This document shows, piece by piece, positions 1 through 61,772 of a DNA stretch of 64,000 bases (its first letter is position 1; the number at the start of each line of letters is the position of its first letter). Both the position numbers and the translations under genes were made by a program. The stretch comes from Candidatus Nitrosocosmicus oleophilus (lineage in GTDB: Archaea > Thermoproteota > Nitrososphaeria > Nitrososphaerales > Nitrososphaeraceae): the NCBI RefSeq assembly GCF_000802205.1, contig NZ_CP012850.1, positions 496,001 through 560,000 of the forward strand. The letters run 5' to 3'. The notes below the pieces were generated by a model. It was not told where the DNA came from. It was given only the letters and a program-made list of their open reading frames with translations, and did not search any database.

Positions 1-3000
1 CACCTGCTTTTTAACTACATAATTCCGCTGATTGTAACTGAAGCGAGTCACCGTCCCACGTGCATCTATCATCGCTATCTTACGGCCACTCTTATCGTAA
101 ACTGTTTGAGAGATTATTTGACCCAGAGGATCAACTATGCTGGTCGGCTTGCCATCTAGGTTATATTCATAATATATAACATTACCTCGTCCATCTGTGA
201 GGCTTCTCGTTTCACCGTGCCGTGTCTTTGAAGTAGTTATTTGCCGTCCTTCTGGAGTGGTTACCATCACGATACGATTTGTCTCGTCATATGTATACAC
301 AGTCTCGTTTCTAAGTGCATCAATCAGGCGATACTCGCGACCGAAAGCATCAAAATCAGTGCGCATTACATGTTGCAACGGATCTTTTATCTCAACGCTT
401 CTACCATTATCAGGATAAAACTTTGTAGTTACCCAACCCAATGCGTCAATCGATCGAATAATACGACCGAAAGCATCAAATTCCAACCGTGTATTTGAGT
501 TAATTCCCCCCACATCTTCGGTCTGCGATACTAAGTGTCCGACCAGATCGTAATCGAACTGGCTGGTAGTGCTCTGACCTTTCTGAGTAGATTGCACTCT
601 GGCAACCAACTCTTGAAAGTCGTTATAGATATTCTCTGTAAATCCTTCTTCTGAATCTTCCTGTTTTACTAGCTGGCCACGACGATCATATTCATACCGG
701 GTGATCTGATCAGCACTTGGGTTGGCAATCAAAGACAACATATCAAATAAGGATTGATCGGCCAATCCACCACCCTCACCACTTCCGCTATCTCTATAGA
801 GTAACTGATTCATGTTAATATTGTTCAGAAGTGCAGCATAGCGATGAACCTGTTCTGGTTGCCCGAAACTGTTGTAAAAAGTTTCGGACACTTCACCGGC
901 AAGACTACTGTCCTCCTCATATCCAACGACATTAACCGAATGGGTTTGTCGATTCTCACGGTCATAATAATAAATAGTCAAGTTGCCATTAGCATCAATG
1001 CTTCGCACCAATTGACCTAGCGTGTCGTATGCGTAGGAAGTACCATATTCACGTATTGCCTGCTCTATTCTCTCCGGAGTTGGGTTCGCCCCTAGCCAGG
1101 CATCGCCTTCGCCTCCCAAACTCGCCGTTACCTCGTTATAGGCGTTATAAAAAGTACGCTGTGCGCGTTCTTCGTCAGTACCTCTTGCTGTGATCACACG
1201 GATAAGGCGACCAACCGGGTCGTACTCATTGTGTGTCAGCGTTGATCCGTCATGCCCTGTGACCTCTAGAATCCTCCCAAAGTTATCATATTGTACAAAG
1301 GATACAAGATGAGGTATCCCTGCCCTGTTTTTTAAGGAATCTAAAGAGTCCGTTTCTGTAACAACTACCGGCGACATGTATCGCAGTGTTCGCTGGGTAT
1401 TAAGCGCGTCATTGTATATCGTCTCAGTCAGAAATTGCTGCTCGTCTACGGATCCAGTTACACGGGCCTGTTTATCATAATATAGGTAACTTCGCAGCCC
1501 GCTTGTATCGACAGGTAGCCATGCCGAGACTTGATTGCTCCCCACAGACTGATTGGGGGTCACCATGGCCTGCTTGTGAATTCGTAATGACAGAGTTCTT
1601 TCAGTCGATTTACCGTTGGGATTAATGACCTGAAAACGAATGCTGTAGAATCCTTCATAGCTACAAGCTCCAGTAATCGACCGAGTAATGGCATCAAACG
1701 ATAGCCCAGGCGGCAATCCTCCAAGTACTCGATAGATGAGCATTGATCCAATCGCTTCTGGGATTACATGGTTCACAGGTACATTTGCTACCAAGTCCAA
1801 CGGAGATAGTGTAATCCATTCAGGCCCTGCTCCGCCTCCTGTTTCTCCCCCATCTACTGTCTGCTCGTCTGATGAAGGGACTGGAAGGAAATTGAAAGGT
1901 AAAGTAATATCAGAGGCTCCACCGCGGTCATCTTCGACACGCAGGGCTATGCTTTCATTAGTTACTGCTAAAGGAGGGTTTCCACGCAACGTACATTTAT
2001 CGGCGTCGAAATTCATCCAAGTGGGCAGATTACCAATCACGCTGAAGATAAGCCGGTTGCCATATGCACTATATGCAGCCATGCGACAACTAAAAGGTTG
2101 GCCAGCAACCAAGATTTGTTGAGTGGCACCTATCCAAACGGGCATAGAGTTAATTGTTGCTGCTGCTTCTGCCGCGGGACTCCGTTGGCTATATCGAACC
2201 GTTTCTATAAGTCGACCGCCCGCGTCATATTTGAATTCGGTTAAGAATCCAAGTGCATCAATTATTCCAACACGACGACCGTCTTTATCGTATAGGTATC
2301 GCGTCACGCGATTGCCAGTTTGTATCATAACCAAGCGGGAAAGATCATCATAGGAATTAATGGTGACAACCCCCAAGGAGTCAGTATAGACAGTTATTCG
2401 ACCTACCTCATCATATTCCATGGTTGTGCTGCGATCATTTGTAGTATCTACGATCACATCACTATCTGCTCCGCCTACTGTAAGAGTAGCCTTTGTCACG
2501 GTGTCTGTCGTGACGTCGTACCAGTCCGTGACATTTGCTGGGTTCTTATATAATGTCTGACGGAAGAGTAGTCCAGTCATATTGTACTCAAACCGTGTCA
2601 CTGCTCCGGTAGCGTCAACCTTGAACTCGAGATTACCTGCAGCATCATAAAATCGGTAGCGACGGCCTCCTTGTGAATCCTCAAGCATTTTAAGCCGGTC
2701 AGCATTGTCATACAAGTAACGCCTTTGTCGCGTACTGGTTCCGTCGGTTTGGCTAACCTCCGTTAGACGGCCGCGGATGTCATATTCGCGGGTTTCGATG
2801 AGGCCACTAGAATAGGCCACGATAACGCGCCGGTTAACATCGTCGTAGGTGACGGTTTGAGAACCATGAGGACTATTATTAGTTAGAACTCGGCCAATTC
2901 CATCAAATGTATTACTGTTTATGCTGGTGCGGATATTGCGAGAGGGACCCCGTACACTGATTGTATTCTTTAATTGGGCATAAGCATCGTATTTAAATTC

Positions 3001-4686
3001 AGTTACACTAGTCTGTTCGTCAAGCACGCCAGAACCAGACGAGCTGATCGTCGCGTAACTCGTTTGCTGACTCACATTGCCGCGTGAATCATATTTATAT
3101 TCAGTGAGCTGGACCTGTGTAACATCTGGGAGTCCCATCACCCAGTTTTTCATATTAACCTCCGTCAATTGATGAGCCGAATCAAGATTGGTTACGTCAT
3201 AGGTATTACCTATGTATAATAATACCTGAGTTAGCAATCCAAAGCCATTGTGCTGACCACCGTAACGATTTTCAGTCACGCGTCCTTCTGGGCTTACTAC
3301 AAAACGCAATCGCGCATTTGAGTCATATACATAACGCGTGGTGATAGGATTGATCCCCTGTTGAGATCCGTTGCCATCTGGCTCAGTAATTAGGTAGCGA
3401 GTCTCGTTCACGAGTTGGTTTAGAGGGTTGAATATGCGTCTAATAGTATTGCCGGCCGCATCACGCTCAAATTCGTTGTTACCCGCGCTATCATACTCGA
3501 AGCTAGTTTTATTATTTTGAGGGTCAGTTATAGATTGAATGTTCCCTGCATCGTCATATTCGAATTTCTTCGACATGTAAGAGCCTACCACAGGGGGCGT
3601 TAGAACCTCGGTTAGGCGGCCATTGGACCCATCGTGGCGATACGCCCAGACCTGACCATCGCCATCTGTGATCGTCGTTATATTCGTTGGAACCTCGTAG
3701 GCGATTGTCCATTGTGAGCTTGGTAGTCCACCCTGATCGGTGACGGCACTCACTCTGCCCAAGTGGTCATAGTTAAAAATCACTCCCACGCCGTCGCTCT
3801 GAGTTACACTTACAATGCGGTTACTCGTAGTATCATAGACATAGCTTGTGACAAAACCATCACCAACAGGGATACTACCGCTGTTAGGTGTTAGATATCT
3901 CGTGACTGTTGACAAGCGGCCAAGGTTATCGTAGTTGTAATCCACTAGTCTCAGTGGGTCGCTCAGTGTTGTGGATGGGTTGCCGCTAGAATCTTCAGTA
4001 AGTGGAATTGCTTCTAGGTGCTGCAGGCGGGTATGGCCACTGAATGAGTTATATGTAAGTTTGATCGCCTGTCGGCTTATAGCATCTTCAATAAACGTCA
4101 ACAACCCATTGCTGTCATAGGTTATGTTGATACTATTATTGCTAATATCAGTTTGGCGGACTAGACGTCCAATCATATCTGGGCCGTTTGAATTCGAATA
4201 CCTCTCCGTAGTGCGCAGAGAGCCATCTGTCCATACCCACTCAGTCATGGTATCGTCATAAGTCAGTTGGTCGTGTGCTCCACGGTCGTCGGTTGTTAAA
4301 AATACGTTATGAATGGAATTCCAAGAATAAGTTGTCTCGTGGCCGTCTCCATTGATTAATAAAATGGTCGCCTCTGGTTCGGGATGCAGAGGTGACCCAG
4401 GACCCTGAAATCTCAGAGTCTTTTCATAATTCCAACGCCAAACATCTTCATTACCAGCACTAGGTGTACCTAGAGAATTATATGTGTGTAATGCAAGCAG
4501 ATTCATTCCCCGACCCGCTAGTTGAATATCATGAGATTGGAGTACCAAGTTGCCATTAACAGCGTTGACGTTGGCTTGGATGCTTCCCCCACCGACGCTC
4601 GATTGTCCAAGTACTCCTGGAGTACCTATAGTATTTAGTGATGTATTCAGTAATCCTAAGCCGTTGCCTGCAACAATAGCTACCAT
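1..4686 (-). CDS. Giant RHS/YD-repeat protein, C-terminus outside window
   Basis: I read this frame codon by codon: it has no stop from the ATG at 4686 to base 1, so at least 1562 residues are present and the end is missing. The first in-frame stop upstream is at 4693-4695. The N-terminus has the entry motif of RHS proteins (GNLVLQSHDIQLAGRGMNL near residue 45). Dozens of YD repeats follow (pattern YDxxGR, for example YDEVGRI, YDKDGRR and YDAAGN). Around residues 860-1040 the repeats are interrupted by two Ig/cadherin-like He_PIG-type modules (LPTWMNFDA and LPPGLSFDA motifs), after which YD repeats resume. No signal peptide is obvious. In the family, the repeats build a shell enclosing a C-terminal toxin or adhesion domain; that end lies outside, so function is open. 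Base composition is clearly more GC-rich than neighbouring genes, which suggests transfer. The RHS identity is firm. Confidence 0.93.
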   Translation of the reverse strand, partial: MVAIVAGNGLGLLNTSLNTIGTPGVLGQSSVGGGSIQANVNAVNGNLVLQSHDIQLAGRGMNLLALHTYNSLGTPSAGNEDVWRWNYEKTLRFQGPGSPLHPEPEATILLINGDGHETTYSWNSIHNVFLTTDDRGAHDQLTYDDTMTEWVWTDGSLRTTERYSNSNGPDMIGRLVRQTDISNNSINITYDSNGLLTFIEDAISRQAIKLTYNSFSGHTRLQHLEAIPLTEDSSGNPSTTLSDPLRLVDYNYDNLGRLSTVTRYLTPNSGSIPVGDGFVTSYVYDTTSNRIVSVTQSDGVGVIFNYDHLGRVSAVTDQGGLPSSQWTIAYEVPTNITTITDGDGQVWAYRHDGSNGRLTEVLTPPVVGSYMSKKFEYDDAGNIQSITDPQNNKTSFEYDSAGNNEFERDAAGNTIRRIFNPLNQLVNETRYLITEPDGNGSQQGINPITTRYVYDSNARLRFVVSPEGRVTENRYGGQHNGFGLLTQVLLYIGNTYDVTNLDSAHQLTEVNMKNWVMGLPDVTQVQLTEYKYDSRGNVSQQTSYATISSSGSGVLDEQTSVTEFKYDAYAQLKNTISVRGPSRNIRTSINSNTFDGIGRVLTNNSPHGSQTVTYDDVNRRVIVAYSSGLIETREYDIRGRLTEVSQTDGTSTRQRRYLYDNADRLKMLEDSQGGRRYRFYDAAGNLEFKVDATGAVTRFEYNMTGLLFRQTLYKNPANVTDWYDVTTDTVTKATLTVGGADSDVIVDTTNDRSTTMEYDEVGRITVYTDSLGVVTINSYDDLSRLVMIQTGNRVTRYLYDKDGRRVGIIDALGFLTEFKYDAGGRLIETVRYSQRSPAAEAAATINSMPVWIGATQQILVAGQPFSCRMAAYSAYGNRLIFSVIGNLPTWMNFDADKCTLRGNPPLAVTNESIALRVEDDRGGASDITLPFNFLPVPSSDEQTVDGGETGGGAGPEWITLSPLDLVANVPVNHVIPEAIGSMLIYRVLGGLPPGLSFDAITRSITGACSYEGFYSIRFQVINPNGKSTERTLSLRIHKQAMVTPNQSVGSNQVSAWLPVDTSGLRSYLYYDKQARVTGSVDEQQFLTETIYNDALNTQRTLRYMSPVVVTETDSLDSLKNRAGIPHLVSFVQYDNFGRILEVTGHDGSTLTHNEYDPVGRLIRVITARGTDEERAQRTFYNAYNEVTASLGGEGDAWLGANPTPERIEQAIREYGTSYAYDTLGQLVRSIDANGNLTIYYYDRENRQTHSVNVVGYEEDSSLAGEVSETFYNSFGQPEQVHRYAALLNNINMNQLLYRDSGSGEGGGLADQSLFDMLSLIANPSADQITRYEYDRRGQLVKQEDSEEGFTENIYNDFQELVARVQSTQKGQSTTSQFDYDLVGHLVSQTEDVGGINSNTRLEFDAFGRIIRSIDALGWVTTKFYPDNGRSVEIKDPLQHVMRTDFDAFGREYRLIDALRNETVYTYDETNRIVMVTTPEGRQITTSKTRHGETRSLTDGRGNVIYYEYNLDGKPTSIVDPLGQIISQTVYDKSGRKIAMIDARGTVTRFSYNQRNYVVKKQV

Positions 4687-41114: not shown

Positions 41115-41177
41115 TTAATTTGTACTAATATTTCATTAATTTGTACTAATATTTCATTAATCTGTACTAATATTTTA
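41115..41177. repeat. Three tandem 21-bp repeats upstream of ferritin-like gene
   Basis: A 21-base unit with core TTTGTACTAATATTT occurs three times without gaps (41115-41135, 41136-41156, 41157-41177). The first two are identical; the third differs at two positions. With 21 bases per unit, all copies face the same side of the DNA helix. The array ends about 25 bases upstream of a TATA box, where archaeal activators or repressors bind, so it is a strong candidate operator. Confidence 0.85.
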
Positions 41178-41200
41178 TAATTTTTCATATAAAATTAAAA

Positions 41201-41215
41201 TATTTATATAAAAGA
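41201..41215 (+). promoter_or_regulatory. TATA-box promoter of ferritin-like gene
   Basis: The sequence TTTATATAAA at 41203-41212 matches an archaeal TATA box. Transcription would start about 25 bases downstream, near 41234, next to the ATG at 41239. That implies a leaderless or nearly leaderless mRNA. Confidence 0.6.
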
Positions 41216-60214: not shown

Positions 60215-61504
60215 TTATTTGAAACTGTCTCGATCTTTGGCACATTCAATAATTTCCGAGTCAGATAAATAGTTATCAATGCTAAATGCTCTATCAAAAC
60301 ATGCAGAGATTTCCTTTGAATGTTTGTTATCAGTCTTACCGTCATTGTCATTATTCTTTATGTTGTCGCTTAAAGCATAATTGTGAAGGCTATTTTGAGA
60401 ATAACTGTCTCGATCTTTGGCACATTCAATAATTTCCGAGTCAGATAAATAGTTATCAATGCTAAATGCTCTATCAAAACATGCAGAGATTTCCTTTGAA
60501 TGTTTGTTTTTGCCATCTAGAGACTCGCCTAATTCACTACTAGTTGGATTAGTATAGATATTTTTGTTGATTGATGTATGGAATGACTGGAATGAATACG
60601 GGTTAGATACTGGTTGATTCATATTTTGCTGTTGTAACCCCGAAAAGGTCGAAGGGTTAGATACTGGTTGATTCATATTTTGCTGTTGTAACCCCGAAAA
60701 GGTCGAAGGTTTGTCTTGGGGTGGAGACTTGACGAAGGTCGAAGGTTTGTCTTGGGGTGGAGACTTGACGAAGGTCGAAGGTTTGTCTTGGGGTGGAGAC
60801 TTGAAGGTATCCATATAATTACCATTAGCTGAATTTGATGAATCAGAAGTAAAAGTGGGAGTACTGACGTCACCGTCAACAGTATTTTTGCTCTGAAATT
60901 CATGATAGAATGGATTGTTCTTACTTAAATTGTATGGATTGCTACTAGAGGAGGAAGATACAGAAGTGGTACTATCAGGGGCTTTGTCTGAAGAAGATAC
61001 AGAAGTGGTACTATCAGGGGCTTTGTCTGAAGAAGATACAGAAGTGGTACTATCAGGGGCTTTGTCTGAAGAAGATACAGAAGTGGTACTATCAGGGGCT
61101 TTGTCTGAAGAAGATACAGAAGTGGTACTATCAGGGGCTTTGTCTGAAGAAGATACAGAAGTGGTAATATCAGGGGCTTTGTCTGAAGAAGATACAGAAG
61201 TGGTACTATCAGGGGCTTTGTCTGAAGAAGATACAGAAGTGGTACTATCAGGGGCTTTGTCTGAAGCTGTTGAATTTGTTTTATCTAGGTTGTCAGTACA
61301 ATCAGAATTTATACCAATAAGCGCACTAGTCATCATACTCGTAATACAGTCAGTAGTTTGGGCGATCAATGAATTATCAGGAACCAAACTTATTTGACCG
61401 TACGAAGGAGTAAATTTTGCATATATAGTTGAAAACGATATCAATAAAAACACCATTAGAATGGGACTGATTTTATTTGCTATGTGCACGAAAAAATAAA
61501 ACAA
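60215..61504 (-). CDS. Secreted repeat protein with Ser/Thr-rich and Cys-containing repeats
   Basis: A 429-residue protein with a signal peptide (ISPILMVFLLISFSTIYA, about 12-29). From residue about 80 it consists of eight copies of a 13-residue unit (DKAPDSTTSVSSS), one of them with DITTSV. Later come two copies of an 18-residue unit (GLQQQNMNQPVSNPSTFS order) and three of a 12-residue unit (SPPQDKPSTFVK). The end is a duplicated 35-residue segment with HSKEISACFDRAFSIDNY and IIECAKDRDS, each containing two Cys that may form a disulphide. It is probably a flexible, glycosylated surface protein. The repeats are almost identical at DNA level, so unit number probably varies between strains. Confidence 0.8.
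   Translation of the reverse strand: MFYFFVHIANKISPILMVFLLISFSTIYAKFTPSYGQISLVPDNSLIAQTTDCITSMMTSALIGINSDCTDNLDKTNSTASDKAPDSTTSVSSSDKAPDSTTSVSSSDKAPDITTSVSSSDKAPDSTTSVSSSDKAPDSTTSVSSSDKAPDSTTSVSSSDKAPDSTTSVSSSDKAPDSTTSVSSSSSSNPYNLSKNNPFYHEFQSKNTVDGDVSTPTFTSDSSNSANGNYMDTFKSPPQDKPSTFVKSPPQDKPSTFVKSPPQDKPSTFSGLQQQNMNQPVSNPSTFSGLQQQNMNQPVSNPYSFQSFHTSINKNIYTNPTSSELGESLDGKNKHSKEISACFDRAFSIDNYLSDSEIIECAKDRDSYSQNSLHNYALSDNIKNNDNDGKTDNKHSKEISACFDRAFSIDNYLSDSEIIECAKDRDSFK
60223..60508. repeat. Identical 106-bp duplication encoding Cys-containing C-terminal module
   Basis: The segments 60223-60328 and 60403-60508 are identical and lie exactly 180 bases (60 codons) apart, so the duplication keeps the frame. 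Confidence 0.92.
60601..60708. repeat. 54-bp tandem repeat, two copies
   Basis: An 18-codon unit starting GGTTAGATACTGG at 60601 and again at 60655, inside the repeat-protein gene. Confidence 0.88.
60699..60804. repeat. 36-bp tandem repeat, about three copies
   Basis: A 12-codon unit with core TTTGTCTTGGGGTGGAGACT occurs three times in a row and codes for the SPPQDKPSTFVK-type unit. Confidence 0.88.
60951..61262. repeat. 39-bp tandem repeat, eight copies
   Basis: A 13-codon unit with core GTGGTACTATCAGGGGCTTT is repeated eight times without gaps (312 bases). Nearly all copies are identical; one has GTAATATC instead of GTACTATC. Such arrays change length by slippage or recombination. Confidence 0.95.
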
Positions 61505-61772
61505 TCATACTTTATAATGAGCACTTTAGAATGCTAGTATTAACTTAACAATATATCTATTATACATAAATAAGATAGATTTTTTTTATAAATTAAAAGG
61601 GATGGTTTAGTATGTATATGATGATCTTAGGCGGCCATATTCTTCTTTTATGTGTAAAGTGTTAAGGCGATACCTCGATAGAATCAATTTTGTACTATCT
61701 TTAAAAACAAAATTGTAGTTTTTTGGTTAAATTGACCCATATTATATATATAGATAATCTATAATAAAATAG

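What the first reader, a model, noticed from the sequence alone, without database searches (positions are those of the whole stretch)
60215..61504. Secreted protein with four independent sets of exact repeats
Repeats of 39 bp (8x), 36 bp (3x), 54 bp (2x) and a 106-bp duplication all keep the frame. Such a gene can change length quickly and may produce surface variation between cells, a trait hardly described in ammonia-oxidising archaea.
Basis: partly seen in the sequence, partly recalled or inferred. Interest (0 to 1): 0.6.

Follow-up and report, generated by a model that had tools for sequence, protein, structure and literature searches.

The report
Repeat-rich secreted protein of Nitrosocosmicus archaea
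This gene makes an exported protein with strongly conserved cysteine-bearing ends and a middle built of repeats that each related species has rewritten and kept identical within its own genome, which makes it a candidate coat protein for soil ammonia-oxidising archaea that lack the usual protein shell.

Summary
The minus-strand gene at 60215-61504 (429 aa) carries 39 bp x 8, 36 bp x 3 and 54 bp x 2 arrays plus an exact 106-bp duplication, all in frame. The host is a complete 3.43-Mb Nitrosocosmicus genome. The family occurs in 14 of 15 Nitrosocosmicus genomes and in none of the 46 other genomes searched. Both ends are conserved: a signal peptide with a C-X15-C region, and a C-terminal C-X18-C module present once or more. 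The middle is labile. Each species has its own repeat unit at the same place, unit lengths stay multiples of three, and one ortholog (211 aa) has no arrays. The 106-bp duplication is an old module pair evolving in concert: copies differ at 0-1 codons within a genome, while synonymous divergence between species is often near saturation. The same unnamed module caps a second genus-wide repeat protein and several secreted proteins of a neighbouring genus. Most likely it is a length-adjustable Ser/Thr-rich extracellular spacer, perhaps part of the glycocalyx-like coat reported for these S-layer-less archaea. On/off phase variation is not supported. Copy number differs between genomes with 98-99% identical flanks (8 vs 5, one a draft MAG), but variation between cells is untested.

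The parts
60215..61504 (-). Gene of 429 aa (TTG start at 61504; alternative GTG start at 61489 gives 424 aa)
   Evidence: NTG at the first position in all 14 genus genomes (ATG in G001 and G008), and an invariant GTG at codon 6.
61505..61527 (-). Conserved promoter element AAAGTGCTCATTATAAAGTATGA with TATA box
   Evidence: Nearly identical upstream of the gene in all 14 Nitrosocosmicus genomes; unique in the window and, for its 18-bp core, in the genome at 0-1 mismatches.
61394..61504 (-). Signal peptide region (residues 1-37, to SYGQ)
   Evidence: Basic start, hydrophobic core ILMVFLLISFSTIY, conserved S(Y/F)GQ in all orthologs aligned; cleavage site inferred.
61289..61378 (-). N-terminal C-X15-C region (DNSLIAQTTDCITSMMTSALIGINSDCTD)
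   Evidence: Both cysteines invariant in all orthologs aligned; dN 0-0.07 against dS up to more than 1.
60954..61266 (-). 8 x 39 bp Ser/Thr-rich array (DKAPDSTTSVSSS)
   Evidence: The homologous position holds 30-, 33-, 36-, 42-, 45- or 54-bp units in other species.
60893..60931 (-). Conserved island NLSKNNPFYHEFQ, with an N-glycosylation sequon NLS in the main clade
   Evidence: SKNNPFY-EFQ nearly invariant across orthologs; NLS sequon listed (absent in G011, G008, G001).
60699..60806 (-). 3 x 36 bp array (KSPPQDKPSTFV)
   Evidence: a 36-bp array of about 3 units also occurs in G010, G003, G002 and G007.
60600..60709 (-). 2 x 54 bp array (PSTFSGLQQQNMNQPVSN)
   Evidence: doubled also in G012 and G013 (54 bp) and G006 (60 bp), single in G010, G014 and G007.
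60403..60508 (-). C-terminal C-X18-C module, copy 1 (106-bp exact repeat)
   Evidence: profile E 6e-23.
60223..60328 (-). C-terminal C-X18-C module, copy 2 (106-bp exact repeat)
   Evidence: profile E 2e-23.

Best explanation
The gene encodes a Sec-exported, acidic, Ser/Thr-rich extracellular protein. Two small cysteine-bearing segments at the ends (a C-X15-C region after the signal peptide and one or more C-X18-C modules at the C-terminus, each probably a disulfide-clasped helical hairpin) are held constant. They are joined by a disordered spacer that grows and shrinks in whole codons through exchange between exact direct repeats. The same exchange, as gene conversion or unequal crossing-over, keeps the two C-terminal module copies identical within each genome. 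The likely role is a length-adjustable, probably glycosylated, surface or matrix protein that contributes to the S-layer-free cell coat or to attachment. Shown here: the repeats, the conserved ends, frame preservation, turnover between species, concerted evolution, and sharing of the module with other proteins that bear signal peptides. Inferred: secretion, disulfides, helical hairpin fold, glycosylation, surface location and function.
For: Observation. Orthologs in 14 of 15 genus genomes and in none of the 46 other genomes at E below 0.05. Same architecture with different units per species, and G004 with no arrays. Conserved ends. Concerted evolution: within-genome codon differences 0,0,0,1,1,0,0, all synonymous, against up to 15 synonymous codon differences between species; random pairing P about 5e-5; exact tract of 104-108 bp in the same register in six species. 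Module also in a second genus-wide repeat protein and in g5 and g6 proteins. Mature protein 32% Ser+Thr, pI 4.5. Predicted helix-loop-helix at each C-terminal module (low confidence). Literature: Nitrosocosmicus lacks S-layer genes, and hair-like surface structures were seen on MY3 and N. franklandus (PMC11559005).
Against: There is no transmembrane or known anchor motif at the C-terminus, so the protein could be freely secreted. No proteomic or glycan evidence was found. Structure models are low confidence (mean pLDDT 38.5 and 54.5). No within-strain repeat data exist; the closest comparison (G013) is a draft MAG with a suspicious local assembly. The family is absent from G009 (96% complete), so it may not be essential. 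The number of sequons is small (2 in the window protein).
Confidence: 0.6

Rival explanations
1. Contingency (phase-variable) locus: repeat slippage or recombination switches the protein on and off or swaps epitopes between cells, for example to escape viruses.
For: Exact repeats in an exported protein; units turn over between species; the G013 copy carries a 1-bp deletion and an in-frame stop.
Against: All units are multiples of three in about 20 arrays of 10 genomes, so gain or loss of units does not switch the frame; G013 is a draft MAG and its copy has a chimeric-looking junction.
Confidence: 0.12
2. Neutral repeat turnover: the spacer is unconstrained, and recombination adds and removes units without effect; only the two ends matter.
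For: G004 keeps both ends without arrays at 211 aa; unit sequence is not conserved between species; strong purifying selection is demonstrated only in the ends.
Against: Arrays recur at the same two positions in most species with Ser/Thr/Pro-rich content, and the second family has arrays too, which suggests that length or composition is maintained. This reading is compatible with the favoured one for the molecular mechanism and differs only on function.
Confidence: 0.25
3. Assembly artefact, with repeat numbers created or collapsed by assemblers.
For: Tandem repeats do cause such errors (PMC6868369 addresses this); N gaps fall inside the arrays of G001, G008 and G012, and G013 looks chimeric.
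Against: Three one-contig genomes (G000, G005, G007) show the same architecture with clearly different unit sequences, which no assembler can invent; draft isolate and MAG assemblies (G003, G010, G014) also resolve both modules.
Confidence: 0.03

Closest known systems
Ser/Thr-rich repeat adhesins with intragenic repeats (yeast Flo11, staphylococcal SD-repeat adhesins)
   Same: Exported, Ser-rich disordered stalk of in-frame repeats whose number varies, between conserved ends (papers found: PMC8617999, PMC3324548; details from general knowledge).
   Different: No sequence relation, no GPI, sortase or other recognisable anchor, cysteine modules at both ends, archaeal host; no adhesion shown.
Archaeal tandem-repeat surface proteins (e.g. 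Methanosarcina, PMC2447325)
   Same: Exported archaeal proteins with tandem repeats.
   Different: Those include repeats of 42-45 aa with conserved motifs; here the repeats are 10-28 aa low-complexity units that differ between species.
Second Nitrosocosmicus repeat family found here (G000:C1 about 349.9 kb, 325 aa; L097)
   Same: Signal peptide, N-terminal cysteine pair, exact in-frame repeat array (48 bp x 6.7), C-terminal C-X18-C module.
   Different: Array is Asp/Asn-rich, not Ser/Thr-rich; single C-terminal module; different N-terminal sequence.

Membership tests
Intragenic tandem-repeat surface/adhesin-like protein (by analogy) | Signal peptide | tested here: met
   Basic start plus hydrophobic core and conserved S(Y/F)GQ in all orthologs aligned; no dedicated predictor was run.
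Intragenic tandem-repeat surface/adhesin-like protein (by analogy) | Exact in-frame tandem repeats, Ser/Thr-rich | tested here: met
Intragenic tandem-repeat surface/adhesin-like protein (by analogy) | Repeat number varies between strains | tested here: inconclusive
   Varies between species and against a near relative with 98.4-98.8% identical flanks (8 vs 5 copies), but that relative is a draft MAG.
Intragenic tandem-repeat surface/adhesin-like protein (by analogy) | Anchor to the cell surface | tested here: inconclusive
   The C-terminus ends in the hydrophilic cysteine module; no hydrophobic tail is seen in the sequence. An uncleaved N-terminal helix could anchor it.
Phase-variable contingency locus | Repeat-unit change shifts the reading frame or promoter spacing | tested here: not met
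   All units are multiples of three in all orthologs; the promoter element is conserved and repeat-free.
Canonical S-layer protein of ammonia-oxidising archaea | Sequence homology to known slp genes | not tested
   No slp sequence was at hand for a direct comparison. No Pfam or NCBIfam family passes its cut-off, and the literature reports no slp homologs in Nitrosocosmicus (PMC11559005).
New C-X18-C extracellular module family | Gapless C-X18-C with invariant Leu and near-invariant Ala and Glu | tested here: met
   17 sequences from three protein types aligned without internal gaps.
New C-X18-C extracellular module family | Disulfide-clasped helical hairpin | not testable with these tools
   Helix-loop-helix predicted at low confidence.

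The most novel reading that the evidence does not exclude
This protein and its Asp/Asn-rich counterpart are main structural components of the S-layer-replacing coat of Nitrosocosmicus, with coat thickness tuned by repeat-number change and the terminal C-X18-C modules acting as a lineage-specific docking device, also used by exported proteins of sister genera.
Probability: 0.2. Interest if true: 0.8.

Novelty: new variant of a known kind. Interest (0 to 1): 0.55.

Why it matters
Nitrosocosmicus species are soil ammonia oxidisers whose outer layer has no S-layer and an unknown composition (PMC11559005). A genus-specific exported protein with conserved capping modules, fast-changing spacers and ongoing concerted evolution gives a concrete, testable candidate for that layer. 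It is also a clear archaeal example of recombination-driven length evolution in an extracellular protein. The C-X18-C module is an unnamed domain that links several exported proteins of three genera.

Tried and rejected
Antisense ORF 60915-61397 (+, 160 aa): judged a mirror of the 39-bp array without stops; not searched further. Mobile-element or plasmid origin: no plasmid match, and the gene sits next to the same GT4 gene in most of the genus. Membership of a Pfam or NCBIfam family: none. Fold search: not run because both AlphaFold models were below a useful confidence. The glycosidase-like protein fused to the module in g5 looked GH5-like by eye, but neither Pfam nor a profile search of PDB sequences supported this, so its enzyme class is left open. 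The sigma-70 promoter scan is uninformative for archaea. Literature on repeat or phase variation of surface proteins in ammonia-oxidising archaea: nothing relevant found. The reference strain's annotation was not available.

Full report
OBSERVATION. On the minus strand at 60215-61504 lies an open frame of 429 codons with an 8-unit 39-bp array, a 3-unit 36-bp array, a 2-unit 54-bp array and an exact 106-bp duplication with 180-bp spacing. The three arrays score 619, 212 and 220 in TRF, and nothing else in the window scores above 117. Small corrections: one 39-bp unit carries a substitution, and the 36- and 54-bp arrays share a 9-bp junction. The window lies in a one-contig 3,430,706-bp genome. 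The named relatives of this gene are Candidatus Nitrosocosmicus or Nitrososphaeraceae records (two are labelled Nitrosopumilus MAGs), and the genome size suggests Ca. N. oleophilus MY3 (inference from memory; the accession could not be opened).

THE FAMILY. The protein has relatives in 14 of the 15 Nitrosocosmicus genomes held (all but G009) and none in the 46 genomes of other genera searched, where E was never below 0.05. In most of the genus the gene is divergent from the same glycosyltransferase-4 (PF00953) gene (coordinates). No Pfam or NCBIfam family is hit above its cut-off. The orthologs read: signal peptide; C-X15-C region (DCITSMMTSALIGINSDC); Ser/Thr-rich array; conserved island SKNNPFYHEFQ; Pro/Gln-rich array (SPPQDNPSTF); C-terminal C-X18-C module once, twice or, in G011, with a third copy past a stop. 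The array units differ by species at the same place: DKAPDSTTSVSSS x8 here, DKAPDSSSTSVSSS x3 in G010, NKSPDSTTSISS x4 in G003, NHNPDSTTTPASSSS x4 in G007, VITPENDTSD x4 in G011. G004 keeps both ends but has no arrays at 211 aa. Every array period in every ortholog is a multiple of three: about 20 arrays in 10 genomes, leaving out G013 (minor low-scoring sub-periods within arrays set aside). Repeat change is therefore filtered for frame and does not act as an on/off switch.

CONCERTED EVOLUTION OF THE 106-BP REPEAT. In the seven genomes with a homologous module pair, the linker between the modules is recognisably orthologous, so the pair is older than the species. Yet the two copies within a genome differ at 0, 0, 0, 1, 1, 0 and 0 of 35 codons, all synonymous, while copies of different species differ at up to 15 synonymous codons, with dS from 0.05 to well over 1 and dN at most 0.08. 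Random pairing of copies gives a mean summed difference of 84 against 2 observed (P about 5e-5, limited by 20,000 trials). A tree groups copies by genome, not by position. The exact tract is 104-108 bp in the same register in six species. This is gene conversion or repeated unequal exchange together with strong purifying selection. G002, G006 and G012 have one module with the end of copy 2, which fits deletion between the copies, but these are short-read MAGs. In the more distant G008 the two modules differ at 25 of 102 bases, so homogenisation is not universal.

NEAREST RELATIVE. G013 (WA-bin7) has flanks 98.4-98.8% identical to the window genome but about 5 units of 39 bp against 8 and 2 units of 36 bp against 3. 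It also has a partial internal duplication, a 1-bp deletion in the array and an in-frame stop. It is a draft MAG with a chimeric-looking junction, so I count it as suggestive only.

THE MODULE IS SHARED. A profile of the C-terminal module finds it elsewhere (extended profile). (i) A second genus-wide family (325 aa in this genome at about 349.9 kb, L097) has a signal peptide, an N-terminal cysteine pair, an exact Asp/Asn-rich array (48 bp x 6.7 here, 51 bp x 5.9 in G003) and one C-terminal module; it is present in G009 too. (ii) In genus g5 (1-9 matches per genome) it sits at the C-terminus of proteins of about 560-600 aa of unconfirmed enzyme class and on both sides of Ser/Thr arrays in L103 and L108. 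(iii) There is one match in g6. In 300 genomes drawn from the class it was found in these three genera only. Seventeen modules align without an internal gap, with invariant Cys, Leu and Cys. AlphaFold models are weak (mean pLDDT 38.5 for the whole protein, 54.5 for the C-terminal 107 residues) but both show helix-loop-helix at each C-terminal module. A disulfide between the two helices is my inference.

START AND PROMOTER. A 23-bp element (AAAGTGCNCANTATAAAGTATGA) lies directly upstream in all 14 genomes, nearly unchanged, and is unique in the window. The TATA box lies about 24 bp from an invariant GTG at codon 6, which fits a leaderless transcript starting there; the upstream NTG is also conserved. 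Both starts leave the signal peptide intact.

MECHANISM. Favoured reading: an exported protein with two constant capping segments and a disordered, Ser/Thr-rich, acidic spacer (32% Ser+Thr, pI 4.5) whose length is set by recombination between exact repeats. Nitrosocosmicus lacks S-layer genes, and cryo-tomography of MY3 and N. franklandus shows thin hair-like surface structures interpreted as a possible glycocalyx of unknown composition (PMC11559005). A genus-specific, exported, mucin-like protein is a reasonable candidate component, but no proteomic, glycan or localisation evidence was found. The sequence part of this account is well supported (about 0.9), the extracellular spacer role moderately (about 0.6), and the coat role weakly (about 0.2-0.3).

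NOVELTY. Repeat-length-variable surface proteins are well known in yeasts and bacteria; the kind is known. The family, its C-X18-C module, its genus-wide spread in ammonia-oxidising archaea and the module's concerted evolution were not found described in the papers searched.

Noticed in passing
G000:C1:349903-350004 (-), locus L097 (outside the window): Second exported repeat protein with the same module and an exact 48-bp Asp/Asn-rich array (6.7 copies); orthologs across the genus with other unit lengths, and a strongly conserved stretch of about 90 bp upstream of the ATG.
   Followed up: partly
L100, L101, L102, L120 (genus g5): Exported proteins of about 560 aa with a glycosidase-like body (motifs LSEPHVD, PLYIGEWNN) fused to the C-X18-C module; no Pfam or PDB sequence match to the body.
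   Followed up: partly
L103 and L108 (genus g5): C-X18-C modules on both sides of Ser/Thr repeat arrays, suggesting that the module flanks spacers in general.
   Followed up: partly
window 61505-61527 (-): Very strongly conserved 23-bp promoter element abutting the start codon, nearly unchanged even where the protein is only 40% identical; unusual for such a variable gene.
   Followed up: partly
L040 (G013, WA-bin7) about 1809-3257: Draft-MAG copy with a partial internal duplication, a 1-bp deletion in the 39-bp array and an in-frame stop: either a real broken allele or a misassembly.
   Followed up: partly
window 41115-41213: Short AT-rich tandem array (21 bp x 3.3 followed by 20 bp x 2).
   Followed up: no
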